A stretch of 47,672 nucleotides of DNA from Pseudomonadota bacterium (GTDB lineage Bacteria > Pseudomonadota > Gammaproteobacteria > Burkholderiales > Burkholderiaceae_C). The DNA lies in contig JAUNHQ010000016.1 in NCBI GenBank assembly GCA_030535425.1, positions 1 through 47,672 on the forward strand. Reading direction: 5' to 3'. The translations under genes and the position numbers were made by a program. A model generated the notes under the pieces. It made no database searches, had not been told where the DNA came from, and saw only the letters and a list, made by a program, of their open reading frames with translations. How positions within the stretch are numbered: position 1 is the stretch's first letter; every line of letters starts with the position of its first letter. This document shows, piece after piece, positions 4,110 to 43,287 of the stretch.

Positions 4110-4164
4110 AAAAAAGCATTTGCGCGCAATGGACAAGGGTTTTCAGCTATTTAATGAATAGCTG
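4110..4164 (-). repeat. Dispersed intergenic element, copy A
   Basis: On the minus strand this reads CAGCTATT-CATTA-AATAGCTG (perfect 8-bp stem, 4144-4164), then GAAAACC, then GCGCGCAAA and a six-T run. The head contains the stop codon of the LysR gene (4151-4153), so the element supplies its last codons. Head-to-tail direction matches that gene. See the finding on the family. Confidence 0.75.
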
Positions 4165-5074
4165 CGGCACGGCGCCAGAATGCCTCGTCGCCATAACGGA
4201 CCTTGAGGTAATCGACCCACAGCCTCAAGCGCAGCGGCAGGTGGCGCGTGGCATGGGGCAAGATGGCGTAGATGCCATTGGGCGGCGCGGCATAGGCTTG
4301 CAGCAGCGGCACCAGGCGGCCAGCGGCAATGTCGCCCTCCACTTCCCAGGTGCTGCGCCAGGCAATGCCATGACCGGCCAGGCACCAGTCGTGCAGCACC
4401 TGGCCGTCAGAGCAGTCCAGCGGGCCGCCAGGGCGCAGGTGAATGACCTGCCCGTTGTCGCTGAAGGCCCAGCCGCGCGTTTGCGATGCGCCGGATGACA
4501 GCACCAGGCAGTCGTGCTGCGCCAGATCGCGCGGGTGGCGCGGGGTGCCGCGCCGGCGCAAGTACGAAGGCGCGGCCACGGTCAGGCGCCGGTTGTCGGC
4601 CAGGCGGATGCTGACCAGGGACGAGTCGGGCAAATCCCCCACGCGCACGGCGCAGTCATAGCCTTCGGCGGCCAGGTCCACCACGCGGTCGGACAGGTTC
4701 AGCGATATGCGCAGGCGCGGGTGCTCGGTATGAAACAGCGGCACCAGCGGTGCCACGTGCCGCCGCCCAAAGCCCGCCGGGGCAGTGATGCGCAAATGCC
4801 CGCTGGCCTGCACGCCCCCGGCACTCACGCTGGCTTCGGCCCCGGCCACATCGGCCAGGATGCGCTGGCAGTCCTCCAGAAACGCCGCGCCTTCGTGCGT
4901 GAGCGCAATGCGCCGCGTGCTGCGCACCAGCAGTTTCACGCCCAGGTGCGCCTCCAGCGCGTCCAGCCGCCGGCCGACGACGGCGGGGGCCACGCCTTCG
5001 GCACGCGCGGCCGCGCTCAAAGAGCCGCGCGCGGCCACCGAGGCGAAGGTCTCGAAGGCCTTGAGCTTGTCCAT
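4151..5074 (-). CDS. LysR-family transcriptional regulator
   Basis: 307-aa LysR-type regulator. Residues 1-60 form the winged helix-turn-helix (FETFASVAARGSLSAAARAEG, with the recognition part APAVVGRRLDALEAHLG), and residues about 90-295 are the two-lobed co-inducer domain (HLRITAPAGFGRRHVAPLV). This opening is typical of the large subgroup related to DsdC/AaeR-like regulators; the ligand cannot be read from sequence. It is divergent from the membrane protein at 5192, a possible target. A CATAAT hexamer ends 8 nt before the ATG with no Shine-Dalgarno, so the mRNA may be leaderless. The last codons fall inside repeat copy A. Confidence 0.9.
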   Translation of the reverse strand: MDKLKAFETFASVAARGSLSAAARAEGVAPAVVGRRLDALEAHLGVKLLVRSTRRIALTHEGAAFLEDCQRILADVAGAEASVSAGGVQASGHLRITAPAGFGRRHVAPLVPLFHTEHPRLRISLNLSDRVVDLAAEGYDCAVRVGDLPDSSLVSIRLADNRRLTVAAPSYLRRRGTPRHPRDLAQHDCLVLSSGASQTRGWAFSDNGQVIHLRPGGPLDCSDGQVLHDWCLAGHGIAWRSTWEVEGDIAAGRLVPLLQAYAAPPNGIYAILPHATRHLPLRLRLWVDYLKVRYGDEAFWRRAAAIH

Positions 5075-5093
5075 GTGCGGGCATTATGCGCAC
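5075..5093 (-). promoter_or_regulatory. Possible leaderless promoter and inverted repeat of the LysR gene
   Basis: GTGCG (5075-5079) and CGCAC (5089-5093) form an inverted repeat directly before the ATG. On the minus strand CATAAT (5083-5088) lies inside it, 8 nt from the start codon. This could be a -10 element with an overlapping operator. No convincing -35 is seen. Confidence 0.3.
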
Positions 5094-5191
5094 CTGTACG
5101 CGGCAAACGCGTGCCCGGCGCCACACCCGCTTTGGCATCGCGCGCAGGCTGTGCGATCATGGCGCGCCTACTTGTTGTCACACTTTTTGCC

Positions 5192-8427: not shown

Positions 8428-8529
8428 GCTTCAAAAACCATAGCTGCTTGCGCGCGCCCCGCACCAGATTTTGAGAAAATCTCTTGAAATCCACGTGTGA
8501 CGCGCGCAAGCAGCTATCTTTATTGAAGC
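8428..8529. repeat. Dispersed intergenic element, copy B (two halves in inverted orientation)
   Basis: Arms 8428-8456 and 8501-8529 are inverted repeats matching at 26 of 29 positions, including a perfect 16-bp block TAGCTGCTTGCGCGCG at 8441-8456 and its complement at 8501-8516. Between them lies a second perfect hairpin, AGATTTT-GAG-AAAATCT (8466-8482). Each arm is the head plus TGCTTGCGCGCG box of the dispersed element. The composite would form a strong hairpin in the glcB 3' region. Confidence 0.75.
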
Positions 8530-11159: not shown

Positions 11160-11214
11160 ACTATTATTTCAATAGCTTAAAAAGCTTATCCAGCGCGCGC
11201 AAACGCGCCTTTTT
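11160..11214 (+). repeat. Dispersed intergenic element, copy C
   Basis: Head CTATT-ATTTC-AATAG (11161-11175), then CTTAAAA, then GCGCGCGCAAA and the T-run at 11210-11214. Here the tail alone forms a terminator: GCGCG (11195-11199), loop CAAA, CGCGC (11204-11208), C, TTTTT. It starts about 10 bp after the ptsN stop and points the same way. Confidence 0.75.
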
Positions 11215-16761: not shown

Positions 16762-16815
16762 GCTATTTATTCAGTAGCTAGAAACCCTTTCCAATAAAGC
16801 GCAAACAGCCTTTTT
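16762..16815 (+). repeat. Dispersed intergenic element, copy D
   Basis: Head GCTA...TAGC (16762-16778, shorter stem than other copies), GAAACCC, AGCGCAAA and a five-T run at 16811-16815. It lies 77 bp after the surA stop, in the same direction, before rsmA. It is more diverged than most copies. Confidence 0.65.
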
Positions 16816-23160: not shown

Positions 23161-23216
23161 AACTACTAAATTAATAGCGAAAAACCATTGCACAACGCGC
23201 GCAAACGGCCTTTTTT
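23161..23216 (+). repeat. Dispersed intergenic element, copy F
   Basis: Head CTACTAA-A-TTAATAG (23163-23177, one mismatch), CGAAAAACC, GCGCGCAAA, CGGCC and a six-T run at 23211-23216. It starts 12 bp after the stop of the NUDIX fusion, same direction. Confidence 0.75.
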
Positions 23217-26793: not shown

Positions 26794-27126
26794 AGGTGCT
26801 ATCCGGCACTAAAAGCCATGGTGCGCATGGGATGAGACATGCGTGAAAAAAATCAGGCAGCGCGCCACGGCAAGCCACAGCGCAGGTGAAACAAAAGGTG
26901 CGTCCGCACTGCCATCATGCCAAAGCATTCGCAAAAAATCTTCAAAAGCCCATACCTAGAAAGAAAAGTTTGCTCCTTTTTTTATGTAACACACCCAAGC
27001 CCCCGCGCCCCAGCGGCGGCACAAGGCAACCGCTAGAATGCGGGAAAACCCGCCTACCCCTTTTGCTTGCAGCCGCAGTCATTTTTCGTCTGTCGGCTGT
27101 TTTCATATGGACTGCGCCTTTTCCTG
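26794..27126. other. Intergenic region before the mla operon
   Basis: 333 bp with no supported gene. It contains the LysR-proximal inverted repeat (26796-26809), an AT-rich stretch at about 26925-26990, a TAGAAT hexamer (27034-27039) that may be a -10 for the mla operon, and directly after it a hairpin GCGGG-AAAA-CCCGC (27040-27053). Confidence 0.45.
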
Positions 27127-28739: not shown

Positions 28740-28763
28740 CCGCAAAGGCAAACACAATCAAGC

Positions 28764-29246: not shown

Positions 29247-29285
29247 GCCCCCTGCACTCACCGCCCGGCACCAAGGCAAGCTACC

Positions 29286-30092
29286 ATGACCTCACCATCC
29301 CCCCTTCGCGCCTACCCACGCCTGGGCCTGCTGGCCAGTGCCGCCACGCTGGCCCTGCTCGCCGGCTGCGCCAGCGCCCCCGGCGCCGACCCGCGCGACC
29401 CCTGGGAGCCGTACAACCGCTCCATGACCCGCTTCAACGACGCGGTGGATGACGCCGTGTTCAAACCCGTGGCCACGGCCTACCGCGATGTGGTGCCCCA
29501 GCCGATGCGCACCGGCGTGGGCAACTTCTTTGGCAACCTGAGTGACGTCTGGTCCTTCGTCAACAACGTGCTGCAGGCCAAGCCCGAGGGTGCCTTGCAC
29601 TCCTTCTGGCGTGTGCTCATCAACACCACCGTGGGGCTGGGCGGCGTGCTCGACCCCGCCAGTGAGATGCGCCTGGAGCGCCACCGTGAAGACTTTGGCC
29701 AAACCCTGGGGCGCTGGGGCATGCCCGCCGGCCCCTACCTGGTGCTGCCCTTCCTGGGCGCATCCACCCTGCGCGACACCGCTGCGCTGCCCGTGGACTG
29801 GTACGGCCAGCCGCAGATGTACGCCAACGATGCGGCGGTGCGCTGGGGTCTGACCGGCTTGCGCATGGTGCATCTGCGCTCCACCCTGCTGGGCGCCACC
29901 GACGTGCTGGAAGCCGCCGCCCTGGACAGCTACACCTTCCGCCGCGATGCCTTCCTGCAAAAGCGCCGCAACGACATTTACGATGGCAACCCACCGCAAG
30001 ACGAAGAACGCTACGACCTGGACGACGGCGCCGCTGCCGCACCTGCGGCCCCGGCCTCTTCTGCCTCCCCGCAGGCCGCGCCTGCCCGCTGA
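29286..30092 (+). CDS. mlaA: Outer membrane lipoprotein MlaA (VacJ)
   Basis: 268-aa lipoprotein. Lipobox LLAGC places the lipidated cysteine at residue 28. The VacJ core DPWEPYNRSMTRFNDAVDDAVFKPVATAYR and FGQTLGRWGMPAGPYLVLPFLG are conserved. MlaA removes misplaced phospholipids from the outer leaflet and passes them to MlaC. An Ala/Pro-rich C-terminal tail follows YDLDDG. Confidence 0.95.
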   Translation: MTSPSPLRAYPRLGLLASAATLALLAGCASAPGADPRDPWEPYNRSMTRFNDAVDDAVFKPVATAYRDVVPQPMRTGVGNFFGNLSDVWSFVNNVLQAKPEGALHSFWRVLINTTVGLGGVLDPASEMRLERHREDFGQTLGRWGMPAGPYLVLPFLGASTLRDTAALPVDWYGQPQMYANDAAVRWGLTGLRMVHLRSTLLGATDVLEAAALDSYTFRRDAFLQKRRNDIYDGNPPQDEERYDLDDGAAAAPAAPASSASPQAAPAR

Positions 30093-30222
30093 CGCCTGGC
30101 TGATGCCTGTCCCGCCAGCACGCGCAACTTGTAACAATCCAGGCGAAACCGGACAGATCCCCCCGGCTCCAAGCGCAGCTCACGGCGCAGGCCGTCAACC
30201 GATTCACCCAAAGAAAGTGCTG

Positions 30223-30900
30223 ATGCAAGCCATGACATCCCCCTTCCGCCCCACCTTGTTGCGCCGCTCCTTCGTGCGCCACGGCGCCCTTGCTCTGGGT
30301 GCGCTGGCGGCCCTGGCGGCCACACCCTGGGCACATGCGCAGTCGGGTGAAGCACCCGACGCCATGATCCAGCGTCTGTCCGATGAGGTGCTGGATCTCA
30401 TCCGCAAGGACAAGGCGCTGCAAAGCGGCCAGATCGACCGCGTGATGGCCGTGGTAGACAGCAAAATCATGCCCAACGTGAACTTCACGCGCATGACCGC
30501 CTCGGCCACCGGCCCCGCATGGCGCCAGGCCACACCTGAGCAGCGCCAGCGCCTGCAGCAAGAATTCAAGAGCCTGCTGGTGCGCACCTACGCGGGCGCG
30601 CTCAAACAGGTCAGCGATCAAACCGTTGAAGTTCGCCCCTTGCGCGCAGGCGCTGGCGACAAGGAAGTCGTTGTGCGCACCCTGGTGCGCGGCATGGGCG
30701 AGCCCGTTCAGCTGGACTACCGCATGGAACGCGCCAGCGGCCAAAACGCCGGCTGGAAAATCTATGACCTGAATGTGCTGGGTGTCTGGCTGGTAGACAA
30801 CTACCGGCCGCAGTTCGCGCAGCAGATCAACGCGGGCGGGGTGGATGCGCTCATCAAGTCCCTGTCCGAGCGCAACCGCACCAACGCCGTCAACGGCTAA
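30223..30900 (+). CDS. mlaC: Periplasmic phospholipid carrier MlaC
   Basis: 225-aa soluble shuttle (Ttg2D family). ATG at 30223 follows AAAGAAAG; a second ATG three codons later is possible. A twin-arginine-like start (LLRRSFVRHGALALGALAALAATPWAHA) is a signal peptide cleaved after residue 39. The domain contains NFTRMTASATGPAWRQATPEQRQRL and WKIYDLNVLGVWLVDNYR, both typical of MlaC. It lies between mlaA and mlaB. Confidence 0.95.
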   Translation: MQAMTSPFRPTLLRRSFVRHGALALGALAALAATPWAHAQSGEAPDAMIQRLSDEVLDLIRKDKALQSGQIDRVMAVVDSKIMPNVNFTRMTASATGPAWRQATPEQRQRLQQEFKSLLVRTYAGALKQVSDQTVEVRPLRAGAGDKEVVVRTLVRGMGEPVQLDYRMERASGQNAGWKIYDLNVLGVWLVDNYRPQFAQQINAGGVDALIKSLSERNRTNAVNG

Positions 30901-30917
30901 GCCCTTTTTTGCGCCCC

Positions 30918-31262
30918 ATGCTCGTGCTGCCCGCCGAAATCACCCACGTGCAAGCCCAGACTTGCCTGGACATGCTGCACAAGGCCGCCCGGGCCGAAGC
31001 CGGGCCGCTGGTGCTGGTGGACGCCACGGCGCTGACACGCTTTGACTCATCGGCCCTGGCCGTGCTGCTGGAATGCCGGCGCGAGTGCCTGCACGACGGC
31101 AAGCAGTTTGCCGTGCGCGGCCTGTCTGCGCGCTTGCGCGAGCTGGCCACGCTCTACGGCATCGACGCGCTGCTGGCCGAACCCACGGTGCCCGCAGTAG
31201 CCGATACGGTGGATGCGGTAGATACGGTGGACGCGCCAGCGCCGCACAGCATAAAAACGTAA
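30918..31262 (+). CDS. mlaB: STAS-domain protein MlaB
   Basis: 114-aa cytoplasmic STAS protein that stabilises the MlaFE ATPase. ATG at 30918 is preferred to the TTG at 30909. The phosphorylation-loop region VDATALTRFDSSALAVLLE carries the conserved Ser. The C-terminal tail ADTVDAVDTVDAP is encoded by an 18-bp tandem duplication (GATACGGTGG repeated around 31203-31232). Its stop codon TAA is part of the TAAAAT hexamer before the next gene. Confidence 0.88.
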   Translation: MLVLPAEITHVQAQTCLDMLHKAARAEAGPLVLVDATALTRFDSSALAVLLECRRECLHDGKQFAVRGLSARLRELATLYGIDALLAEPTVPAVADTVDAVDTVDAPAPHSIKT

Positions 31263-31265
31263 AAT
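31260..31265 (+). promoter_or_regulatory. Candidate -10 for the ABC exporter (leaderless type)
   Basis: TAAAAT, overlapping the mlaB stop codon, ends 9 nt before the ATG at 31275. There is no Shine-Dalgarno between. This could start a separate transcript inside the operon. Confidence 0.4.
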
Positions 31266-31274
31266 CCGGGCTTC

Positions 31275-32237
31275 ATGCCCGCGATCTCCTTTGAGTCGGT
31301 CAGCAAGGTTTACGCCTCTGCTGGCCAGCACGGCTCCCCCCCCTTCAAAGCCCTGGACAACGTCAGCTTCGACATCGAAGAAGGCGAGTTCTTCGGCCTG
31401 CTCGGCCCCAACGGCGCGGGCAAGACCACGCTCATCTCCATTCTGGCCGGTCTGGCCCGCGCCACCTCGGGCCGCGTCAAGGTGCACGGCTTTGACGTGC
31501 AGCAGGACTTTGCCCAGGCGCGCCGGCACCTGGGCATCGTGCCGCAGGAGCTGGTGTTCGACCCCTTCTTCACCGTGCGCGAGGCGCTGCGCTTTCAGTC
31601 CGGCTACTTCGGTCTACACCGCAACGAGGCCTGGATCGACGAGCTGCTGCACGGCCTGGGCCTGGCCGACAAGGCTGGGGCCAACATGCGCCAGCTCTCC
31701 GGCGGCATGAAGCGCCGCGTGCTGGTGGCGCAGGCGCTGGTGCACAAGCCTCCCGTCATCGTGCTGGACGAGCCCACCGCCGGGGTGGACGTGGAACTGC
31801 GCCAGACCCTGTGGCAGTTCGTTGCCGCCTTGAACCGCCAGGGCCATACCGTGCTGCTGACCACGCATTACCTGGAAGAGGCCGAAGCCCTGTGCCAGCG
31901 CCTGGCCATGCTGAAAAAAGGCCAGGTCATCGCGCTGGAGCGCACCAGCACCTTGCTGGCCAATGCCGCCGCCAGCGTGCTGCACTTCAAGACCGACGAC
32001 GCGCTGCCGCCCGCCCTGGCCGCGCAGGCGCGCGTCACGGGCCGCATCGTCGAGCTGCCCGCCTACAAGGCCGACGACGTGGAAGCCCACCTGGCCGCGC
32101 TGCGCCAGGCGGGTGTGCGCGTGGAAGACGTGGAAATCCGCAAGGCCGACCTGGAAGACGTGTTCGTCAAGATGATGGGTGGCACTGCCGAGCCGCCCAC
32201 TCCCGTGCGCGCCGACATCGTGGAGGCCAGCGTATGA
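31275..32237 (+). CDS. ABC exporter ATP-binding protein (CcmA/YadG type)
   Basis: 320-aa ATPase. Walker A GPNGAGKTT (residues 44-52), signature LSGGMKRRVLVAQALV, Walker B VIVLDEPTAGVD and a C-terminal domain typical of YadG/DrrA-like subunits. With the permease encoded next (4-bp overlap) it forms an ABC-2 exporter. Its position just after mla genes is conserved in Burkholderiales and suggests an envelope-lipid or cell-wall link, but the substrate is unknown. Confidence 0.9.
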   Translation: MPAISFESVSKVYASAGQHGSPPFKALDNVSFDIEEGEFFGLLGPNGAGKTTLISILAGLARATSGRVKVHGFDVQQDFAQARRHLGIVPQELVFDPFFTVREALRFQSGYFGLHRNEAWIDELLHGLGLADKAGANMRQLSGGMKRRVLVAQALVHKPPVIVLDEPTAGVDVELRQTLWQFVAALNRQGHTVLLTTHYLEEAEALCQRLAMLKKGQVIALERTSTLLANAAASVLHFKTDDALPPALAAQARVTGRIVELPAYKADDVEAHLAALRQAGVRVEDVEIRKADLEDVFVKMMGGTAEPPTPVRADIVEASV

Positions 32238-33061
32238 CCTCACCGCACCAGCCCCCTCAGCAGTTCCCGCGCCAGCCTCCGCATTTGCACGCCCAGCCCG
32301 CTGCCAACGACGGCTGGAAGATGCTGCTGAAAAAAGAAGTACTGCGCTTTTGGCGCGTGGCCGGGCAGACCATTGCCGCGCCCGTGCTCACCGCCGTGCT
32401 GTACCTGATGATCTTCGGCCACGTGCTGCAAGGCCGGGTGCAGGTCTACCCCGGTGTGGACTACATCGCCTTTTTGGTGCCTGGCCTGGTGATGATGAGC
32501 GTGCTGCAAAACGCCTTTGCCAACAGCGCCTCCAGCCTGGTGCAAAGCAAGATCATGGGCAGCCTGGTGTTTCAGCTGCTCACCCCGCTGTCGGCGCGGC
32601 ACTGGTTCATCGCCTACGTGGGCGCAGCCATTGTGCGCGGGCTGGCCGTGGGCCTGGGCGTGTACCTCATCACCTTGTTCTACGCCCCGCCGCAGGTCGC
32701 CTCGCTGGCGTGGGTGCTGGTCTTTGCCGTGCTGGGCGCGGCCCTGATGGGCGTGCTGGGCCTGCTGGCCGGGCTGTGGGCCGACAAGTTCGACCAGATG
32801 GCCGTGTTCCAGAACTTCCTGGTCATGCCCATGACCTTTCTGGCGGGCGTGTTCTATTCCATCCACTCCCTGCCCAGCGTCTGGCAAGGCTTGAGCCACC
32901 TCAACCCGTTTTTCTACTTGATCGATGGTTTTCGCCACGGCTTTTTCGGCGTGAGCGACGTCTCGCCCTGGCTCAGCCTGGGCGTAGCCGGCAGCGCCCT
33001 GGCCCTGCTGTCGCTGCTGTCGCTGCACCTGCTCCAAACCGGCTACAAGCTGCGGGGCTGA
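32234..33061 (+). CDS. ABC-2 type exporter permease (YadH-like)
   Basis: 275 aa. The ATG at 32234 overlaps the preceding stop (ATGA). After a Pro/His-rich cytoplasmic N-terminus, about six membrane segments follow. MIFGHVLQGRVQVYPGVDYIAFLVPGLVMMSVLQNAFANSASSLVQSKIMG and the FLAGVFYSIHSLPSVWQGLSHLNPFFYLIDGFRHGFFGVSD block are typical of the YadH/DrrB group. Partner is the ATPase upstream. Confidence 0.9.
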   Translation: MTSPHQPPQQFPRQPPHLHAQPAANDGWKMLLKKEVLRFWRVAGQTIAAPVLTAVLYLMIFGHVLQGRVQVYPGVDYIAFLVPGLVMMSVLQNAFANSASSLVQSKIMGSLVFQLLTPLSARHWFIAYVGAAIVRGLAVGLGVYLITLFYAPPQVASLAWVLVFAVLGAALMGVLGLLAGLWADKFDQMAVFQNFLVMPMTFLAGVFYSIHSLPSVWQGLSHLNPFFYLIDGFRHGFFGVSDVSPWLSLGVAGSALALLSLLSLHLLQTGYKLRG

Positions 33062-33097
33062 CCGCCATCACCTTTCACACCGCCCAACGCGCCTTTC

Positions 33098-33340
33098 ATG
33101 ACTGCCGACCAGCTCCAACACCTCATCACCGCCGGCCTGCCGTGCGACCACATCCACCTGGAAGGCGATGGCCGCCACTGGTTTGCCACCATCGTCTCCC
33201 CCGCGTTCGAGGGCAAGCGCCCCATCACCCGCCACCAGATGGTCTATGCCACCCTGGGCGAGCGGCTGCACACCGACGAGGTGCACGCCTTGTCCATGAA
33301 AACCTTCACCCCCGCCGAATGGGCCAGGCAAGCCGCTTGA
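33098..33340 (+). CDS. ibaG: BolA family protein, IbaG-like
   Basis: 80-aa BolA-fold protein. The KH-like core (CDHIHLEGDGRHWFATIVSPAFEGKRPITRHQMVYATLG) carries the conserved His pair. IbaG/BolA proteins bind Fe-S clusters with monothiol glutaredoxins and help maintain envelope and iron homeostasis. The position between an mla-type cluster and murA is the same as in E. coli. Its stop codon abuts repeat copy H. Confidence 0.92.
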   Translation: MTADQLQHLITAGLPCDHIHLEGDGRHWFATIVSPAFEGKRPITRHQMVYATLGERLHTDEVHALSMKTFTPAEWARQAA

Positions 33341-33400
33341 TATGCTCTTTATTTGATAGCTGCTCGCACGCTCTGCACGCGCGCTAACGCCCATTTTGAC
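33341..33400 (+). repeat. Dispersed intergenic element, copy H
   Basis: Head GCTCT...ATAGC (33344-33360), then the TGCTCGCACG box, then GCACGCGCGCTAACGCCC and ATTTTGAC. This is the second subtype (TGCTTGCGC-like box, ATTTTGAC tail). It starts right after the ibaG stop TGA and ends 18 bp before murA, inside the operon. Confidence 0.7.
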
Positions 33401-33418
33401 TATTCAAAACACCAGCCC

Positions 33419-34714
<1,296 letters not shown>

Positions 34715-34731
34715 ACCTGCTTTCGCTGCCT

Positions 34732-34944
34732 GTGCCTGACAACCTGAACACCCCTCCTGACGGCCTGCCCCGCTACCGCCTGCTCACCGGCCCAGACGAC
34801 GCGGCTTTTTGCCGCCGCGTCAGCCAGGCGCTGGCGCAGGGCTGGCGGCTGTACGGCTCGCCTGCGGCCACGTTCAATGGCACGCACGTCATCGTGGCGC
34901 AGGCCGTGCTGTGGCCCGACGCGCCCGCGCCCGACACCTTTTGA
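34732..34944 (+). CDS. DUF1737 domain small protein
   Basis: 70 aa with a GTG start at 34732. The whole protein is a DUF1737 domain (YRLLTGPDDAAFCRRVSQALAQGWRLYGSPAATFNG). Function unknown; such genes lie beside murA or his genes in many beta-proteobacteria. It is 12 bp upstream of hisG, so it shares its transcript. Confidence 0.82.
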   Translation: MPDNLNTPPDGLPRYRLLTGPDDAAFCRRVSQALAQGWRLYGSPAATFNGTHVIVAQAVLWPDAPAPDTF

Positions 34945-34956
34945 ACAAGCCCCCGC

Positions 34957-35616
34957 ATGATTACCCTCGCCCTGTCCAAAGGCCGCATCTTTGACGAAAC
35001 CCTGCCGCTGCTGGCCGCCGCAGGCATCGAGGTGCTGGAAGACCCCGACACCTCGCGCAAGCTCATCCTGCCCACCAACCGGCCCGATGTGCGCGTGGTG
35101 CTGGTGCGCGCCAGCGACGTGCCCACCTATGTGCAATACGGCGGGGCCGACTTGGGTGTGGCCGGGCTGGACACGCTGATCGAGCACGGCAGTGCCGATC
35201 TGTACCAGCCGCTGGACTTGCGCATTGCCCGCTGCCACATGGCCGTGGCCGCGCCCGAAGGCTTTGACTGGCCGCGCGCCGCCCGCGCGGGCAGCCGCAT
35301 CACCGTGGCCACCAAGTACACCAGCATCGCGCGCGATTTTTTTGCCGACAAGGGCATGCACGTGGACATCGTCAAGCTCTACGGCAGCATGGAGCTGGCC
35401 CCGCTCATTGGCCTGGCCGATGCCATCGTCGATCTGGTCAGCACCGGCAAAACGCTCAAGGCCAACCACCTGGCCGAAGTCGAGCACATCATGGACATCA
35501 GCGCCCGCCTGGTCGTCAACCAGGCCGCGCTCAAGCTCAAGGCCACGGCCATCCGGCCCATCATTGATGCCTTTGCGCAGGCGGTGGGCAAGGACCCGGG
35601 GCAACAGCCCTCCTGA
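34957..35616 (+). CDS. hisG: ATP phosphoribosyltransferase, short form
   Basis: First enzyme of histidine synthesis, 219 aa. The length is that of the HisG-S form, which lacks the C-terminal regulatory domain and works only with HisZ; no hisZ is in the window. [30 protein letters not shown] and the PRPP-binding block [17 protein letters not shown] are conserved. Confidence 0.95.
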
Positions 35617-35869
35617 AAGCCATGCGCGTGACCACGCGATGCGGCTGCGGCAAAGGCGGAAGCGGCGCTGCGCAGCGCGCGTCCGCATGGGCGGATAGCC
35701 CCTCCTTGACGCCCATGTTGCCCATGTGCACAAGGCCAAAGCCAGGTTAAAGGCCTCAAGGGCACGGCATAAAAGAGCGGCGTCAGGACACAGCCGGGTG
35801 AGACAATCGCCATCTGCGCGCTGGCGCATGCGGCGCGCCTGGACGGTATCTTTTCATTTGGCTGCTCCC
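35617..35869 (+). promoter_or_regulatory. hisG-hisD intergenic region
   Basis: 253 bp. A GACAAT hexamer (35802-35807) could be a -10 giving hisD its own promoter with a leader of about 55 nt. No terminator is obvious after hisG, and no gene is supported. Confidence 0.35.
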
Positions 35870-37192
35870 ATGTCTTCTGCCCTCACCGCTATCCCCTTGC
35901 GCCTGTCTACCGATCAGCCGGATTTCGAGCAACAGTTTGCCCAGCGCCTGCACTGGAGCGCCGAGCAGGACGAGGCCATTGAGCTGCGGGTCAAAAGCAT
36001 CCTGGCCGACGTGCGCACGCGCGGCGATGCGGCGGTGCTGGAATACACCGCCCGCTTTGACGGCCTGAAAGCCGCCCGCATGGCCGATCTGCAACTGAGC
36101 GCTGACGAGCTGCAAGCCGCCTTTGACGGCCTGCCCCTGGATCAGCGCGAAGCCCTCACGCAAGCGGCCGCACGCATTCGCCGCTACCACGAGTGGCAAA
36201 AAAAGCAGGGCGGCGAAACTGCTACCTACCGCGATGACGATGGCACCTTGCTGGGCCAGAAGGTCACGCCGCTGGACCGCGTGGGCATTTACGTGCCCGG
36301 CGGCAAGGCCGCCTACCCCAGCAGCGTGCTGATGAACGCCATTCCGGCCCACGTGGCAGGTGTGGGCGAGATCGTCATGGTCGTGCCCACCCCCGGCGGC
36401 GAGAAAAACCCCCTGGTGTTGGCCGCCGCGCACGTGGCCGGTGTCAGCCGCGCCTTCACCCTGGGCGGCGCGCAGGCCGTGGCGGCGCTGGCCTATGGCA
36501 CGGCCACCATCCCCAGGGTGGACAAGATCACCGGCCCGGGCAACGCCTACGTGGCCAGCGCCAAAAAGCACGTGTTTGGCCAGGTGGGCATCGACATGAT
36601 TGCCGGCCCCAGCGAAATTCTGGTGCTGGCCGATGGCAGCACCCCGCCCGATTGGGTGGCCATGGATTTGTTCAGCCAGGCCGAGCACGACGAGCTGGCG
36701 CAAAGCATTTTGCTGTGCCCTGATGCGGCCTACATCGACGCGGTGCAAGCCGCCATGGACCGCCTGCTGCCCGAGATGCCGCGCGCGGCCATCATCGCCA
36801 AAAGCCTGAGCGGGCGCGGTGCGCTCATCCACACCCGGCACATGGAAGAAGCCTGCGCCATCAGCAACCGCATCGCGCCCGAGCACCTGGAAATCTCCAG
36901 CCGCCAGCCGCAGCGCTGGGAGCCGCTGCTCAAGCACGCGGGCGCCATCTTTTTGGGGGCCTACACCAGCGAGTCCTTGGGCGACTACTGCGCTGGCCCC
37001 AACCACGTGCTGCCCACCAGCGGCACCGCGCGCTTTTCCAGCCCGCTGTCGGTGTACGACTTTCAAAAGCGCAGCAGCCTGATTGAAGTGAGTGCGCAAG
37101 GCGCCCAAACCCTGGGCCGCATCGCCAGCACCCTGGCCCACGGCGAAGGCTTGCAGGCCCACGCACGGGCGGCGGAAATGCGGCTGGCGTAA
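35870..37192 (+). CDS. hisD: Histidinol dehydrogenase
   Basis: Zinc enzyme that oxidises histidinol to histidine in two NAD+-dependent steps, 440 aa. ATG at 35870 gives the usual length. [50 protein letters not shown] and [25 protein letters not shown] are conserved, including the metal and base residues. hisC, normally next in Burkholderiales, does not follow; an intergenic mosaic and a convergent flavodoxin gene do. Confidence 0.96.
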
Positions 37193-37304
37193 AAGGCTGC
37201 GCCAGAGACCAGGCGCAGCCCTGTGGCCGCTGAAGGGCAATGGCCCGTTGCGCTTTCGGGAAAACCTTTTTAAAGCCCGTCGGCATCTAAAGTCTTTGGG
37301 CATC

Positions 37305-37358
37305 AAAAAGGCCGTTTGCGCATGACGGACGCGCGCAAGCAGCTATTGTTTTTAAAGC
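37305..37358 (-). repeat. Dispersed intergenic element, copy I
   Basis: On the minus strand: GCTTTAAAAACAATAGC (37342-37358), TGCTTGCGCGCG, GCGCAAACGGCC and a five-T run. It mixes the TGCTTGCGCGCG box of one subtype with the GCGCAAA-GGCC-T tail of the other. It lies 124 bp downstream of the flavodoxin gene, in its direction. Confidence 0.7.
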
Positions 37359-37366
37359 GCCATGCC

Positions 37367-37387
37367 CCTTCCCCCTTTGGGGGAAGG
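37367..37387. repeat. Perfect G/C hairpin
   Basis: CCTTCCCCC-TTT-GGGGGAAGG: a 9-bp perfect stem with a 3-nt loop, directly left of copy I's outer end and followed by GGGATGGGGGT. Similar palindromes are dispersed in Burkholderiales genomes. No T-run, so not a typical terminator. Confidence 0.55.
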
Positions 37388-37481
37388 CTGGGATGGGGGT
37401 ACGCGGCGCGTCACTTGCGCAGTGCCGCCCTCATATCGCGTCAAGGCGTCCTGCCCACGCAGGCGCGCATCCCAGACGAAA

Positions 37482-37973
37482 TCAAAACACCCCCATCGCC
37501 ATCCCCGCCGCCAGCGCCGCGCCCAGATCGGCTGCGCTTTGCAGGAGCTCGGGTGCCAATTGCTTGGGCGCGGCAATGGCCTCGGGGGTTTGCGCATGGG
37601 TGCAGACGATGAGCGCGGGCGCGGCCGCCTTCAGGCGCCAGCCGGTGGCAATGCGCTCGATCTGCCGCGCGGCGCCCTGGCCGTCGCTGCCCGCGCACAC
37701 CAAGCTGGCGTAGGCGCGACCTTCAATGCGGCCCAGCGCGGGGTAGTAGCAGCGGTCGAAAAAATCTTTCATCAGCCCGGCCATGCTGGCCAGGTTCTCA
37801 GGGGTGGCAAACACGTAGGCCTGCGCGCCCAGCACGTCGGCCGGGCCTGCCTGCGGCGCGTGCAGCAGGCGCACTTGCACGCTGGCCGCATCACGCGCGC
37901 CGCGCGCGGCCGCTTGGGCCAGCTGCAAGGTGGCGCCGGTCATGGAGTGATAGACGATGAGCAGGGTTTTCAT
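37482..37973 (-). CDS. Flavodoxin-fold NAD(P)H:FMN oxidoreductase-like protein
   Basis: 163 aa. N-terminus LLIVYHSMTGATLQLAQAAA is the FMN phosphate-binding loop of the flavodoxin fold, and AYVFATPENLASMAGLMKDFFDRCYYP is the second FMN loop seen in NADPH-dependent FMN reductases and WrbA relatives. Substrate unknown. It is convergent with hisD and separated by two intergenic repeats, and divergent from the FAD oxidoreductase. Confidence 0.83.
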   Translation of the reverse strand: MKTLLIVYHSMTGATLQLAQAAARGARDAASVQVRLLHAPQAGPADVLGAQAYVFATPENLASMAGLMKDFFDRCYYPALGRIEGRAYASLVCAGSDGQGAARQIERIATGWRLKAAAPALIVCTHAQTPEAIAAPKQLAPELLQSAADLGAALAAGMAMGVF

Positions 37974-38004
37974 GGGGTACGCGCCTTGGCGGCCTGAAAA
38001 GAAA

Positions 38005-38061
38005 ATACTACAAAAATAGTAGCTTAAAACATATGAACAACGCGCGCAAATGGCATTTTTT
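38005..38061 (+). repeat. Dispersed intergenic element, copy J
   Basis: Head TACTA-CAAAAA-TAGTA (38006-38021), GCTTAAAAC, GCGCGCAAA, TGGCA and a six-T run at 38056-38061. This copy is exceptional: it lies between two divergent genes (starts 37973 and 38119), not after a stop codon. Confidence 0.75.
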
Positions 38062-38103
38062 GCTTAATTCCCTGCCAGGCTTTTATGCGCGCGTGCCCGG
38101 CGC

Positions 38104-38109
38104 TACGAT
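38104..38109 (+). promoter_or_regulatory. Candidate -10 of the FAD oxidoreductase gene
   Basis: TACGAT ends 9 nt before the ATG at 38119; the T-run of copy J lies about 43 bp upstream. Only a weak AGG could serve as Shine-Dalgarno. Confidence 0.3.
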
Positions 38110-38118
38110 GCAGGCTCC

Positions 38119-39285
38119 ATGAACACCCGCATCGTCATCATTGGCGGTGGCGCCATTGGCAGCGCCATTGCATGTGCCTTGACGGCGCCGCATGCGCAAG
38201 CGCATGCGGCGCTGGACGTCATCGTGCTGGAGCGTGATTTCTCCTATGCGCGGGCCTCGTCGGCGCTATCGGCCTCTTCCATCCGGCAGCAGTTTTCCAC
38301 GGCCATCAACATGGCGATTTCGCGCCACGGCATTGACGTGCTGCGCGCCTTGCCCAGCGTGGGGCTGCATGAGGGCGGTTATCTGTATCTGGCCACACCG
38401 GCGGGTGAGCGCACGATGCGGCGCAACCACACCCTGCAACGCGCGCAAGGGGCAGATGTGGCCCTGCTGCCGCCCGAGCAGTTGCGCACGCGCTTTCCCT
38501 GGCTGAGCACCGATGATGTGGCGCTGGGGTCGCTGGGCTTGTCGGGCGAGGGCTGGTTTGACGGCTACAGCCTGCTGCAAGCGTTTCGCGGCCAGGCGCG
38601 GGCACAAGGCGCGCGCTATGTGCAGGCCGAGGCCTCAGGGCTGGAGATGGTGGCCGGCGCGGCGCCTGCCCGCGTGCGGGCGGTGGCGCTGGCCACGGGC
38701 GAGCGCCTGCCCTGCGACGCCGTGGTGAACGCAGCCGGGCCATGGGCACGCCAGGTGGCTGCCTGGGCAGAGATTGATTTGCCGGTGTTCGCCCGTCGGC
38801 GCACGGTGTTTCACGTCACCTGCCCTGCGCCGCTGCCGGGCTGCCCGCTGCTGATTGATCCCTCAGGCATCTGGCTGCGGCCAGAAGGGACGGGCTTTAT
38901 CACCGGTTTTGCGCCTGCGCCCGATGCCGATGCCAACGACCTGCCGCTGGATGCGCCTGAGCATGCGGCGTTTGAAGATTTCGTCTGGCCCACGCTGGCC
39001 GCGCGCATTCCGGCCTTCGAGGCGCTGCGCATGCAGCGCGCCTGGGCGGGGTATTACGAGATGAACGTGTTTGACCACAACGCCATCGTGGGCTTGCACC
39101 CGGCATGCGAGAACCTGTATTTCGCCAATGGTTTTTCAGGTCATGGCCTGCAACAGTCGCCAGCGGTCGGGCGCGGTGTCGCAGAGCTGATCCGGCATGG
39201 GCGCTACCAGACGCTGGACATGTCTGCGCTGGGCTGGGCGCGGGTGCTGGCTGGCCAGCCGCTGCTGGAACAAAACGTGATCTGA
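38119..39285 (+). CDS. FAD-dependent oxidoreductase, DAO family
   Basis: 388-aa flavoprotein of the glycine/D-amino-acid oxidase family. Residues 4-14 hold the dinucleotide-binding motif (IVIIGGGAIGSAI), and CDAVVNAAGPWARQVA and the closing YFANGFSGHGLQQSPAVGRGVAELI block complete the FAD fold. YEMNVFDHNAIVGLHP resembles sarcosine/dimethylglycine dehydrogenase relatives including FOXRED1. Actual amine substrate unknown. Ends 43 bp before a bidirectional terminator. Confidence 0.87.
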   Translation: MNTRIVIIGGGAIGSAIACALTAPHAQAHAALDVIVLERDFSYARASSALSASSIRQQFSTAINMAISRHGIDVLRALPSVGLHEGGYLYLATPAGERTMRRNHTLQRAQGADVALLPPEQLRTRFPWLSTDDVALGSLGLSGEGWFDGYSLLQAFRGQARAQGARYVQAEASGLEMVAGAAPARVRAVALATGERLPCDAVVNAAGPWARQVAAWAEIDLPVFARRRTVFHVTCPAPLPGCPLLIDPSGIWLRPEGTGFITGFAPAPDADANDLPLDAPEHAAFEDFVWPTLAARIPAFEALRMQRAWAGYYEMNVFDHNAIVGLHPACENLYFANGFSGHGLQQSPAVGRGVAELIRHGRYQTLDMSALGWARVLAGQPLLEQNVI

Positions 39286-39328
39286 ATGCCTTGGCGCCCG
39301 GGGATACATGGATCAGCCGCCAGGCATG

Positions 39329-39354
39329 AAAAAAGCGCCCAATGGGCGCTTTTT
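39329..39354. terminator. Bidirectional Rho-independent terminator
   Basis: AAAAAAGCGCCC (39329-39340), loop AAT, GGGCGCTTTTT (39344-39354). It serves convergent genes ending at 39285 (+) and 39383 (-). Confidence 0.9.
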
Positions 39355-39382
39355 CAAATGTGCATGCCTGTCGGCTGCATTT

Positions 39383-39679
39383 TCAGGCAATCAAAAAAGC
39401 CTCGCGGTTCTTGCCTTCAATCCATTTGGGGGCTTTGCCGCGGCCGGTCCAGGTTTGGCCGGTGGCAGGGTCGCGGTATTTAGGGGCGACTTTGCCGCCA
39501 GCACGGGGGCTTGCAGCGCGGCGGCCAGCGCCGGGAAATACGTCTTTGGCTTCCAGGCCATATTCGTCAACAATACGGCGCACCTGAGCCACGGCGTCAG
39601 CAATTTCACGCTTGCGAGCTTCTTCGATTTGTACCGCCAATGCCTGTTGCTGTTGCAGGAGCTCTTTGTAAGTTGCCAT
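39383..39679 (-). CDS. H-NS family nucleoid protein
   Basis: 98-aa histone-like protein of the H-NS/HvrA/BpH3 group. ATG at 39679 has GGAG 9 nt upstream. Residues 1-45 form the coiled-coil oligomerisation segment. After a Gly/Arg-rich linker, residues 66-90 are the DNA-binding part, KYRDPATGQTWTGRGKAPKWI, with the TGRGKAP minor-groove loop. Such proteins silence AT-rich, often acquired DNA. Single gene, with its own terminator. Confidence 0.93.
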   Translation of the reverse strand: MATYKELLQQQQALAVQIEEARKREIADAVAQVRRIVDEYGLEAKDVFPGAGRRAASPRAGGKVAPKYRDPATGQTWTGRGKAPKWIEGKNREAFLIA

Positions 39680-39765
39680 GCTTTGCATCTCCAAAAGGGG
39701 TTATTTAAGTGCAATAAATATAGCACATGCTTTGTTTTTTCAGCGCCCCAAATGTCACGATTTTT

Positions 39766-41067
39766 TTAAGTGTCCTGCGGCGGGGCCGGACGGGCCAGCA
39801 CTTTGTCGATACGGCGGCCTTCCATTTCAGCCACTTGAAATAGCCAGCCAGCAGCCTCGATTTCGTCGCCCACGTTGGGCAGATGCCCGGCTTCAGCCAG
39901 CAGCAGGCCCGCCACGGTGTTGTAGCGGCCTTTGTCCTCGCGCGGCAGGGTGTCGATGGCCAGGCGTGCTTTGAGCTCGCTGATGGGCATCAGCCCTTCG
40001 AGCAGCCAGGTGCCGCCTTCGAGCGGCGTTGCCCAGGCATCAATATGGGCGCCGGGTTTCAATTCGCCGGTAATGGCCTCGAGTAAATCGCGAGGGGTCA
40101 TCAGCCCTTGCACGACGCCATACTCGTCCACCACAAACATCATGCGGCCCGATTTGTCGCGCAACTGCTCCAGCATTTCCAGCCCGCTCAGGGTTTCGGG
40201 CACGAAAGCGGCGGCGGCAGCGTGTTTTTCCAGCAGGTCAGGCGCCTGGCGCCCCAGCGAAAGCAGGTGCGCCACGGAAATAATGCCGATGACTTCTTCC
40301 AGGCTTTCCCGGCAGACGGGATACCACGAGTGAGCGCCTTTTTCTCCCTTGGCAGCCACGAAATCCAGCGCCTGCGCCACGGTCAGGCTGGCGTCCAGCC
40401 ATTCAATATCGCCGCGCGGCACCATCATGGAGGTCAAAGGCCGGTCGTCCAGATGAAACACGTTGCGCACCATCTGGTGTTCGTGTTCTTCTATCAGGCC
40501 GGCGTCCACCCCTTCTTCCAAACTGGCGGTGATTTCCTCGGCAGTGACAGCGCGGGCGCTGTTTTCATCAATGCGCAGGAGTTTGAGCACGCCTTTGGTA
40601 CACACCGACAGCAGGGCCACGAAAGGTTTGGCCACCGTGGCCAGCCAGGTCATGGGCTGGGCGATCCAGCGGGCCACGGCCTCGGGAAACATCTGGCCGA
40701 TGCGCTTGGGCACCAACTCGCCAAAGATGATGGTGGTGAAGGTGATGCTGACCACCACGATGGCAGTGGCCGCAACGGAGGCCACGCCTTCGCTCAGCCC
40801 GCGCGCACCCAGCCATGCGGCCAGCGGGGCGCTGAAGGCTGCCTCGCCCACGATGCCGTTGAGCATGCCGATGGAGGTGATGCCCACCTGCACGGTGGAG
40901 AGAAACTGCGTGGGCTGCTCCATCAGCCTGAGCGCGGCAGCGGCGCCTTTGTCGCCACTTTCTTCCATGGCGGCCAGGCGCGCCTTGCGGCTGGATGCCA
41001 CGGCCAGCTCCGACATGGCAAAAGCGCCGTTGAGCAAGGTGAGAAAAACGATGAGCAGCAGGTCCAT
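39766..41067 (-). CDS. HlyC/CorC (CNNM) family membrane protein
   Basis: 433 aa from the ATG at 41067; a frame-open extension to a TTG at 41112 exists. Three to four membrane segments of a DUF21 domain (LLIVFLTLLNGAFAMSELAVASSRKARLAAM), two CBS domains (near PLTSMMVPRGDIEWLDAS and MMFVVDEYGVVQGLMTPRDLLEAI) and a C-terminal CorC_HlyC domain with FQVAEMEGRRIDKV. Members are linked to Mg2+/Co2+ efflux. Divergent from apaH with a 53-bp gap. Confidence 0.92.
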   Translation of the reverse strand: MDLLLIVFLTLLNGAFAMSELAVASSRKARLAAMEESGDKGAAAALRLMEQPTQFLSTVQVGITSIGMLNGIVGEAAFSAPLAAWLGARGLSEGVASVAATAIVVVSITFTTIIFGELVPKRIGQMFPEAVARWIAQPMTWLATVAKPFVALLSVCTKGVLKLLRIDENSARAVTAEEITASLEEGVDAGLIEEHEHQMVRNVFHLDDRPLTSMMVPRGDIEWLDASLTVAQALDFVAAKGEKGAHSWYPVCRESLEEVIGIISVAHLLSLGRQAPDLLEKHAAAAAFVPETLSGLEMLEQLRDKSGRMMFVVDEYGVVQGLMTPRDLLEAITGELKPGAHIDAWATPLEGGTWLLEGLMPISELKARLAIDTLPREDKGRYNTVAGLLLAEAGHLPNVGDEIEAAGWLFQVAEMEGRRIDKVLARPAPPQDT

Positions 41068-41113: not shown

Positions 41114-41120
41114 CCGGGGC

Positions 41121-41957
41121 ATGGAACTCTACCTGATTGGCGATGTGCAAGGCTGCGATGCGGCTCTGGGCCGACTGCTGGATGAAGTGGGCTTTTCCCC
41201 CAGCCGCGACCGGCTGGTGGTGCTGGGCGATCTGGTCAACCGCGGCCCGGACTCGCTGGCCGTGCTGCGCCGGCTAATGGCGCTGGGCGATGCCGCCACC
41301 TGCCTGCTGGGCAACCACGACCTGCACCTGCTGGCCGTGGCGCAGGGCGTGCGCAAGCCGCACCGCAGCGACACGCTGCACGGCATCTTGCAAGCGCCTG
41401 ACCGCGATGCGCTGATCGACTGGCTGCGCCAGCGCCCGCTGGCCTGGCGCGAGCGCGGGGTGCTGATGGTGCATGCGGGCGTGCTACCCGCGTGGACGGC
41501 CGAGCGCACCTTGCAGCTGGCCGCCGAGGTGCAGGCCGTGCTGCGCGGCGCGGACTGGGGCGTGTTCTTGCACCAGATGTACGGCAACGAGCCCGCGCAG
41601 TGGCACGACGGCCTGCAAGGCGCAGCACGCCTGCGCGTGATCGTCAACGCGCTCACGCGGCTGCGTCTGTGCACGGCGGACGGGCGCATGGATTTCGACA
41701 CCAAGGACAGCCAGGGCGCTGCGGGCGCACCCGATGGCTACATGCCCTGGTTCGATGTGCCGGGCCGCCGCACGGCCGCAGACGTGGTGGCGTTTGGCCA
41801 TTGGTCCACGCTGGGCTGGCTGGACCGCCCGGACGTGATCTCGCTGGATACCGGCTGCGTGTGGGGCGGCGCGCTCAGCGCGTTGCGGCTGGGTGAAAAC
41901 GGGCGCAGCCGCACACTCCTGCAGGTGCGCTGCCCGCAAGCGCAGGTGCCCGGGTGA
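41121..41957 (+). CDS. apaH: Bis(5'-nucleosyl)-tetraphosphatase (symmetrical)
   Basis: 278-aa metallophosphoesterase that cleaves Ap4A to two ADP, also reported to remove Np4 caps from RNA. Metal-site motifs are GDVQGC (7-12), [11 protein letters not shown] (36-46) and GNHD (64-67); HAGVLPAWT and the [11 protein letters not shown] block near the C-terminus are ApaH-specific. It overlaps the DUF445 gene by 4 bp. It is not in the E. coli surA-pdxA-rsmA-apaG-apaH operon context. Confidence 0.95.
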
Positions 41958-43231
41958 AGGGCGCCGCCTTCGCCCGCACAGGCACGGGCACGCGTGATGC
42001 CGCAGGCATGCAGCGCCTGGCGCTGGGCCTGCTGCTGCTGATGGCCGCGCTGTACGTGCTGGCCCTGACGCAGCAAGCGCGCCAGCCCGCGTGGGCCTGG
42101 GTCGCCGCGTTTGCCGAAGCGGCCATGGTGGGCGCCATTGCCGACTGGTTCGCGGTGGTCGCCCTGTTTCGCCATCCGCTGGGCCTGCCCATACCGCACA
42201 CGGCCATCATTCCGGCAGGCAAGCAGCGCATTGGCGAGAACCTGGGGCAGTTCATCACCACCCACTTTCTGTCGCAGGCGCAGGTCATGGACAAACTGCG
42301 CGAGCTGGACGTGGCCGCGCGTGTGGCGGCGTGGCTGTCGCGTCCCGAAAACGCCGCGCGCGTAGCCACCCACTTGCTGGACGTGGGCCGCTGGGCCACA
42401 GGGGCGCTGCGCGATGCGCGCGTGCAGCAGTTCGTCACCGGCCTGGCCCGGCGCGGGCTGGCACAGATCGACATCACGCGCCTGAGCGGCCAGGTGCTGC
42501 AAGCCATGACGCACGAGCGCCGCCACCAGCAGCTGCTCGATGCGGCCCTGCTGCAACTGGCGCGCCTGCTGGGCGAAGACACGGTGCAGGACACCATCAG
42601 CGACGCCATCGCGCGCGAGGTGCGCGCGCTGAAGTACGTGGGGCTTGACCAGGTGGCCGCGCGGCTGGCCACGCGCAAGGTCGTGGCCATCACCGCCCAC
42701 ACCATCATCGACATGGCGCAAGACCCGCAGCACGCACTGCGCCTGCGCTTTGACCATGTGGCAGCAGACTTTGTCGAGCGGCTCAAAAGCGATGAGGCCT
42801 TGCACGCGCGCGGCGAGCGCCTGAAAGCCGAGCTGCTGGCCAGCCCCGCCGTGGGCCAGTATGTGAATGCACTGTGGGGCGAGCTGCTGGACTGGCTGCA
42901 CGACGACATGGGCCGCGCTGACTCCAGCATCCGCCAGCGCATCGAGCAGGCAGCGCACTCGCTGGGCGAGCGGCTGGCGGGCGACGCGCACATGCGCGGC
43001 TGGATCAACGGCCAGTTGCAGGCCGCTGCACCCGCCCTCATTGACCGCTGGCGCGAGGACATCCGCCGCTACATCGCCGCGCGCGTGCAGGCATGGGACA
43101 CGCGCGAGATGAGCGAGGAGCTGGAGCGCCACATCGGGCGCGACTTGCAGTTCATCCGCATCAACGGCACGCTGGTAGGCGGACTGGTGGGGCTGTGCCT
43201 TCATGCCATCACGCAGTGGGCAATGGTATAA
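41954..43231 (+). CDS. DUF445 family (YjiN-like) membrane protein
   Basis: 425 aa, GTG start overlapping the apaH stop (GTGA). One or two N-terminal membrane segments ([33 protein letters not shown]) contain the DUF445 signature [38 protein letters not shown]. The long helical rest ends with a further membrane segment ([18 protein letters not shown]). Function unknown. Translational coupling to apaH is notable. Its stop codon touches repeat copy K. Confidence 0.9.
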
Positions 43232-43287
43232 ATGCTATTTATTTAATAGCTTAAAACCATTACCAGTTGCGCGCAAATGGCATTTTT
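43232..43287 (+). repeat. Dispersed intergenic element, copy K
   Basis: Head GCTATT-TATTT-AATAGC (43234-43250), TTAAAACC, GCGCGCAAA, TGGCA and T-run at 43283-43287. This is the cleanest copy. It begins at the stop codon of the DUF445 gene, same direction. Its left edge AAATGCTATT can also pair with the tail AATGGCATTT (43276-43285). Confidence 0.8.

What the first reader, a model, noticed from the sequence alone, without database searches (positions are those of the whole stretch)
4110..43287. A dispersed ~55-60 bp intergenic element, 11 copies in 47.7 kb
Copies lie at 4110-4164(-), 8428-8529 (inverted pair), 11160-11214(+), 16762-16815(+), 21403-21460(+), 23161-23216(+), 25792-25848(-), 33341-33400(+), 37305-37358(-), 38005-38061(+), 43232-43287(+). 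Shared architecture: AT-rich hairpin head (GCTATT, 5-7 nt, AATAGC), then either TTAAAACC or TGCTTGCGCGCG, then GCGCGCAAA, then GGC and a T-run. Two subtypes and one hybrid (copy I) are visible. At one per ~4 kb it would number over a thousand per genome. I recall similar strings in Comamonadaceae but no named family.
Basis: partly seen in the sequence, partly recalled or inferred. Interest (0 to 1): 0.8.

Follow-up and report, generated by a model that had tools for sequence, protein, structure and literature searches.

The report
Dispersed palindromic repeat in Comamonadaceae genomes
A short DNA element repeated hundreds of times, so far found in one bacterial family, is real, unnamed and partly palindromic; it looks more like a scattered DNA recognition unit than an RNA signal, and part of a catalogued 'protein family' turns out to be this repeat read backwards.

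Summary
The repeat is real. The window holds ten full copies (52-72 bits), an inverted pair of half-copies and a likely degraded copy inside mnmE. A 448-kb sample of this 3.31-Mb assembly has 82 copies, so about 600 in all (476-739), not 'over a thousand'. An exact 'canonical' pattern is in 28 of 200 genomes of the family and in 0 of 291 genomes of the order outside it.

The AT-rich head stem does not covary. A second hairpin does in canonical copies, through Watson-Crick pairs; G-U pairs are not spared, which leans towards DNA. This genome's commonest variant has lost it. Most copies lie between genes, enriched at convergent 3' ends. No RAYT is linked.

Best reading: a REP/MITE-like DNA repeat spread by an unidentified factor, its core retained in place. 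Unnamed motif pairs printed in 2017 fit it. New here: about the first third of Pfam DUF1010 is its antisense translation. Against simple insertion: in-gene copies in MnmE and an RlmI-like protein add no 21-residue insertion.

The parts
4110..4162 (-). full copy A, A-rich middle; overlaps the 5' end (TTG start) of the longest mnmE-like ORF
   Evidence: 59.5 bits
8428..8459 (+). 5' half-copy (head + TGCTTGCGCGCG), left member of an inverted pair behind a malate synthase G gene
   Evidence: sequence; 10.7 bits by R1, 18.6 bits by R2
8492..8529 (-). 5' half-copy, right member of the inverted pair
   Evidence: sequence; 14.8 bits by R1, 18.7 bits by R2
11160..11213 (+). full copy, A-rich middle
   Evidence: 58.4 bits
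16762..16815 (+). full copy, A-rich middle
   Evidence: 63.8 bits
21406..21459 (+). full copy, A-rich middle, between alanine racemase and NUDIX/MBL genes
   Evidence: 71.5 bits; genes
23162..23215 (+). full copy, A-rich middle; the corresponding gap in L055 is about 29 bp and has no copy
   Evidence: 68.0 bits
25792..25845 (-). full copy, A-rich middle
   Evidence: 63.6 bits
33344..33397 (+). full copy, CGCACGC middle variant
   Evidence: 52.6 bits
37305..37358 (-). full copy, TTGCGC middle, closest in the window to the canonical hairpin form
   Evidence: 52.2 bits by R1, 39.5 bits by the canonical model R2
38007..38060 (+). full copy, A-rich middle
   Evidence: 61.8 bits
43234..43287 (+). 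full copy, A-rich middle
   Evidence: 71.1 bits
3392..3456 (+). probable degraded in-gene copy, antisense inside mnmE
   Evidence: 28.3 bits, E 3e-6 in 448 kb by R2; 17.2 bits by R1; read

Best explanation
A family-specific, non-autonomous palindromic repeat of about 54-65 bp that works like a REP or MITE: it was scattered by a trans-acting factor that recognises it as DNA. Its fixed blocks are a head dyad GCTAT..ATAGC, a middle with an almost invariant GCGC, GGC(C) and an A/T tract. Copies settled mainly behind gene 3' ends, where they do least harm, and their core stayed while the rest of each copy drifted. Shown: the discrete unit, copy number, restriction to the family within the order sample, species dialects, 3' bias, covariation of hairpin 2 in canonical copies, no linked RAYT. 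Inferred: copying by insertion, the DNA-binding factor, and why the core persists. The factor is not identified.
For: Sharp edges: information rises from background at about -16 and falls back at about +49 around TAGC in 58 canonical copies. Common descent: 82 own-genome copies share about 56 bits, four times the 13.4 bits needed to mark about 607 sites (somewhat inflated because a model chose the copies). Patchy amplification: 0 to 297 exact canonical places among 29 genomes of the genus, own included; the own dialect signature is 275 here against 0-18 in 24 other genomes of the genus. One clean presence/absence site: L067, L068, L079 and L096 carry a copy between two genes where L126 has 13 bp between the anchors, against 86 in L067; in L068 the extra DNA begins, by eye, at the element's 5' edge. 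DNA level: in the three variable stem pairs 97 Watson-Crick pairs against 68.9 expected (0 of 5000 shuffles), G-U 28 against 37.9 (p 0.002), A-C 12 against 21.5. Placement: 68 of 82 midpoints in called intergenic gaps (19.5% of the sequence); a copy in 20 of 48 convergent, 39 of 219 tandem, 6 of 44 divergent gaps.
Against: No mover found. PF01797 is in 24 of 28 canonical-positive genomes and 123 of 172 others, and of 31 Y1_Tnp loci only 2 or 3 have anything element-like within about 1.5 kb. No target duplication seen. Only one clean empty site, which a deletion in L126 would also give. No recent copies: the best of 3321 pairs among 82 copies is 84% identical (one of the two a partial copy), the median 57%. 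In-gene copies in MnmE and an RlmI-like protein align to solved homologues with gaps of at most 3 residues; the MBL gene (weak alignment, an 8-residue gap beside the copy) and the DapF loop (about 10 residues longer) also lack a 21-residue insertion. An excess of Watson-Crick pairs by itself lowers all other classes, so the G-U result is only a lean. Core retention at orthologous sites is inflated because only detected copies were counted.
Confidence: 0.5

Rival explanations
1. Sites for a chromosomal DNA-binding protein (nucleoid, gyrase-like or segregation factor), kept by selection where they stand; spread is secondary.
For: Columns that never vary (T10, A24-G25-C26, G49, A52, T61-62 of the 82-copy alignment) at 57% median identity; in all eight orthologous groups the core differs less than the rest; dyad head; hairpin 2 covaries through Watson-Crick pairs; in-gene copies in place.
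Against: Genomes of the genus range from 0 to 297 exact canonical places and 11 of 29 have none, some of these incomplete. Spacing looks random: gap CV 1.15 and 1.07 in two genomes. About 56 bits is far more than a binding site needs.
Confidence: 0.2
2. An RNA signal: intrinsic terminator or 3'-end stabilising hairpin of the upstream gene.
For: T-run at the 3' edge, near 3' ends of genes, sense bias in tandem gaps 27 to 14; 3 of 4 canonical copies tested fold well (z -2.8 to -4.0; the fourth -0.4).
Against: G-U pairs are not spared; four A-rich copies of this genome are matched or beaten by 24, 75, 169 and 36 of 200 shuffles; of 58 canonical tails 39 have TTT, 7 an A-run without TTT, 12 neither; none of six copies in 20001-40000 was flagged as a terminator on its own strand; 14 of 41 tandem copies are antisense.
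Confidence: 0.13
3. An uptake-sequence-like motif that accumulates in place by biased DNA uptake and recombination, in species dialects.
For: In-gene copies without length change, dialects between congeners, both orientations, convergent 3' enrichment, no linked RAYT.
Against: Known uptake sequences are much shorter (recalled); 56 shared bits and a covarying hairpin argue for copying. Competence was not examined.
Confidence: 0.1

Closest known systems
Anonymous motif pairs in Acidovorax ebreus TPSY, GCTTAT(N)5AAGCG (114 copies), and Polaromonas naphthalenivorans CJ2, ATAGCT(N)22CAAAAG (125 copies) (PMC5217627, section 13 read)
   Same: Letters and spacings fit this family: the reverse complement of the first is CGCTT(N)5ATAAGC, the canonical hairpin; the second is ATAGCT, 22 bases, then the last C of GCGC and an A-run. 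Mostly intergenic, often between convergent genes (44 of 107; 34 of 101). By arithmetic; those two genomes were not searched by name.
   Different: Listed there as potential novel motifs, unnamed, without a full element, structure or family-wide distribution.
REP / REPIN with RAYT (PMC3116915, passages read)
   Same: Short, intergenic, imperfect palindrome, hundreds of copies; one REPIN-like inverted pair of half-copies in the window.
   Different: No RAYT beside it; copies are mostly single, not doublets.
Beta-proteobacterial repeat element BRE (PMC3110155, section 14 read)
   Same: Small repeat in Bordetella and Comamonadaceae genomes.
   Different: About 90 bp full length, 69% mean GC in Bordetella, sometimes tandem, at most 29 per genome; its sequence is in figures and files I could not read, so the comparison rests on size, GC and layout.
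Rickettsia palindromic elements (mentioned in PMC10969869, passages read)
   Same: Palindromic repeats found inside reading frames.
   Different: About 150 bp; no sequence comparison made.
Pfam PF06231 DUF1010
   Same: About model positions 1-22 of 66 are this repeat read on its other strand.
   Different: Filed as a protein family; in an integron cassette its C-terminal part runs into what looks like an attC site (my reading of the sequence, not tested).
MITE reported in Polaromonas sp. JS666 (cited in PMC10969869; the paper PMC2570305 is not held)
   Same: Possibly related; unknown.
   Different: Could not be compared.

Membership tests
REP/REPIN (RAYT-associated) | Imperfect palindrome, extragenic, high copy | tested here: met
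   Canonical copies: hairpin 2 covaries; 68 of 82 own-genome copies in called gaps
REP/REPIN (RAYT-associated) | Cognate RAYT flanked by the element | tested here: not met
   31 Y1_Tnp loci, 2 or 3 with anything element-like within about 1.5 kb; canonical-positive genomes G134, G180 and G234, 99-100% complete, are not among those with a PF01797 match
REP/REPIN (RAYT-associated) | Mostly inverted doublets | tested here: not met
   One inverted half-copy pair recognised in 448 kb against 82 model hits listed singly
MITE | Terminal inverted repeats shared with an autonomous element | tested here: inconclusive
   Some copies read TCAAAAA..TTTTTGA-like end to end, many do not; no parent element was systematically sought
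MITE | Target site duplication at precise insertion | tested here: inconclusive
   One clean empty site, no duplication visible
Intrinsic terminator | GC-rich hairpin directly before a T-run, co-oriented with the upstream gene | tested here: not met
   window 20001-40000 only for the scan
Rfam RNA family | Match above gathering score | tested here: not met
   0 in the window; no match at a copy in 6 loci at E up to 1
DNA uptake sequence | Preferential uptake of DNA bearing it | not testable with these tools
   -

The most novel reading that the evidence does not exclude
A long recognition unit that spreads by converting sequence in place as well as by insertion, in species-specific dialects: this genome's commonest dialect has dropped the covarying hairpin yet keeps head, GCGC, GGC and T-tract in hundreds of copies, and old copies sit inside conserved genes (MnmE, RlmI-like) without adding length to the protein. 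The driver would be a single-strand annealing or uptake process not yet described.
Probability: 0.15. Interest if true: 0.8.

Novelty: new member of a known kind. Interest (0 to 1): 0.52.

Why it matters
It measures a repeat that fills intergenic space in many Comamonadaceae and that others had printed only as unexplained motif pairs. It shows that a Pfam family, DUF1010, is in part a misread DNA repeat, so proteins so named (including a class 1 integron cassette product on enterobacterial plasmids) should be re-examined; the repeat also hints that this cassette came from a Comamonadaceae genome. In-gene copies that add no protein length would be a test case for how bacterial repeats enter genes.

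Tried and rejected
RAYT as the mover: rejected. RNA head stem: no covariation in three alignments. Replication-strand bias: it seemed visible in the truncated list (which lists mostly + places first); the full list for G044 is mixed. G043 (21 places, the last two one palindromic site read both ways) still looks blocked by strand and was not pursued. Tile GC skew against orientation in the own genome showed nothing clear by eye. Regular spacing: not seen. BRE identity: judged different by size, GC and layout. Phages: no match. Literature for sequence strings: 0 papers; for names. In-gene tests on five own-genome ORFs: one loop 8 residues longer than its homologue; one copy lies before the murC domain, so its ORF start is probably wrong; three lie where no homologue aligned, or only over the first few residues.
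Full report
Observation. The eleven places in the finding are correct. Ten are full copies of one unit; the eleventh, 8428-8529, is an inverted pair of 5' half-copies. The signature GCGCAAANNNNNTTTTT gives 275 exact places in the 3.31-Mb, 144-contig, 88.6%-complete assembly in which the window lies and 1 for the reversed pattern. A covariance model (R1, 40 copies: 10 from the window, 30 from the genome) finds 82 copies at E up to 0.01 in the window plus 20 tiles of 20 kb, which I took from large contigs and not at random. That extrapolates to about 607, range 476-739. R1 was seeded mostly by the 3' signature, so copies without it may be missed; the genome-wide R1 search scored only 150 candidates and is not a count.

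Anatomy. In 82 own-genome copies T10, A24, G25, C26, G49, A52 and, where read (75 copies), two bases of the T-run never vary, while the median pair is 57% identical and the best 84%. The copies share about 56 bits, against 13.4 bits needed to mark about 607 sites; choosing copies by a model inflates the first figure somewhat. The middle comes in at least three variants.

Structure test. The head stem does not covary beyond shuffles in 40, 82 and 58 copies. Hairpin 2 does in the canonical set: 0 of 500 shuffles reach the covariation score of the two helices together, and the changes on both sides are all in hairpin 2. RNAalifold predicted no consensus structure for the own-genome sets. In the three hairpin-2 pairs that the pattern leaves free and that both vary, 97 Watson-Crick pairs stand against 68.9 expected, with G-U 28 against 37.9 and A-C 12 against 21.5. 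In 49 canonical-model hits left after dropping 32 of 81, meant to be redundant in-gene copies, Watson-Crick is 303 against 276.9, G-U 32 against 46.7 and A-C 27 against 34.1. Selection on one RNA strand should spare G-U over A-C; it is spared a little in the first set (0.74 against 0.56 of expectation) and not in the second (0.69 against 0.79). So the evidence leans towards DNA but is not strong. Four A-rich copies of this genome fold no better than chance, one of them with a different short stem; canonical copies fold well in 3 of 4.

Distribution. The exact canonical pattern is in 28 of 200 genomes of the family, 18 of 29 of the genus (0 to 297 places each, own genome included) and 3 of 300 genomes drawn from the order. 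These three are in the own family, which supplied 9 of the 300, so 0 of 291 outside it; the reversed control was 0 in every row listed. The own dialect signature is 275 here and 0-18 in 24 congeners. Named relatives around one gene include Ottowia, Acidovorax, Limnohabitans, Polaromonas and Hydrogenophaga; in those 80 loci (1.42 Mb) R1 has 39 hits at E up to 0.1 and the canonical model R2 81 at E up to 0.01.

Placement. Genes in the tiles were called by a simple codon-model script, so starts are rough. 68 of 82 copy midpoints fall in called gaps, which are 19.5% of the sequence. A copy is in 20 of 48 convergent, 39 of 219 tandem and 6 of 44 divergent gaps; tandem copies are 27 sense and 14 antisense.

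Movement or selection in place. For movement: shared information, patchy amplification, one clean empty site. The window copy at 23162-23215 lies in a 112-bp gap where L055 has about 29 bp, consistent with insertion but not clean. For retention: in all eight orthologous groups the core columns differ less than the rest; for the three groups that I take as intergenic and that have more than two members the core differs by 6.5%, 11.6% and 18.4% and the rest by 43.0%, 34.2% and 42.4%, with the detection bias stated above. Against simple insertion: the in-gene groups in dapF (21 loci), a NUDIX/MBL gene (8) and an RlmI-like gene (6) have the same or a slightly different length in most of the orthologous pairs that one search printed (at most six per copy), with or without a detected copy. 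Solved homologues show no 21-residue insertion: MnmE none against 9hip and 3gee and two single-residue gaps against 1xzp; the RlmI-like protein one 1-residue and one 3-residue gap against 3c0k; the DapF loop about 10 residues longer; the MBL alignment is weak, with an 8-residue gap beside the copy. The tension is real and I cannot resolve it.

RAYT. Two Y1 transposase genes exist in the own genome. Presence of PF01797 does not track the repeat (24 of 28 against 123 of 172; the four negatives, G134, G170, G180 and G234, read off the lists), and the repeat does not flank these genes.

DUF1010. A blastn search of plasmids with one canonical copy found 63 records, 20 shown: three Comamonadaceae plasmids first, then 17 enterobacterial plasmids with the match under 'DUF1010 domain-containing protein'. 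In one of these the frame lies in a class 1 integron next to aadB and carries a 50.9-bit copy antisense to the frame. Pfam PF06231 matches 7, 56, 105, 44 and 35 times in the own genome, G014, G018, G003 and G044 at E up to 0.1: all five have a match over the family's cut-off, most matches are below it, four of the five searches were capped at 150 scored candidates, and the same search rings in 4 of 14 control genomes, none over the cut-off. Of the 50 rows listed for G044 and G003, 10 overlap an exact canonical copy, all antisense, against 0.075 expected; the other 40 were not tested against inexact copies. Of eight DUF1010 loci, six have a canonical-model hit overlapping the match on the opposite strand; of the other two, L223 is the C-terminal neighbour of one of the six and L228 has none at the match. 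The matches mostly cover model positions 1 to about 22 of 66, so about the first third of DUF1010 is the translated repeat.

Prior print. PMC5217627 (section 13 read) lists two motif pairs whose letters and spacing fit this family. Searches of the open library for names and strings showed no named family in their listings. The Polaromonas JS666 genome paper, cited for MITEs, is not held.

Verdict. Real, unnamed as far as searched, family-specific within the order sample; a new member of the kind 'interspersed palindromic repeat', DNA-level rather than RNA-level on present evidence, mover unknown.

Noticed in passing
L220:2363-2608 (plasmid pKPN5) and PF06231: About positions 1-22 of Pfam DUF1010 are the antisense translation of this repeat; a class 1 integron cassette next to aadB on enterobacterial plasmids carries a copy, suggesting the cassette came from a Comamonadaceae genome.
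   Followed up: partly
L065:6367-6431 and orthologues in 20 other loci: An old copy lies inside dapF coding sequence; another in an RlmI-like methyltransferase gene (L065:3085-3149) and one in the NUDIX/MBL gene (L065:11173-11237).
   Followed up: partly
L032 (G000:C92): One of the two Y1 transposase genes of this genome has four matches to a GWRGGAGCGGGC string within 3.3 kb, like classical REPs, and so may serve a different repeat.
   Followed up: no
G043:C1, 21 canonical places: Copy orientation seems to switch in large blocks along the chromosome, unlike G044; too few to judge.
   Followed up: no
G014:C1: Twenty Y1 transposase matches, several with identical scores, so perhaps a multi-copy IS200-like element, in a congener that also has 286 canonical places of the repeat.
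   Followed up: no
window:8428-8529: Inverted pair of 5' half-copies behind the malate synthase G gene, REPIN-like, the only such pair recognised in 448 kb.
   Followed up: partly
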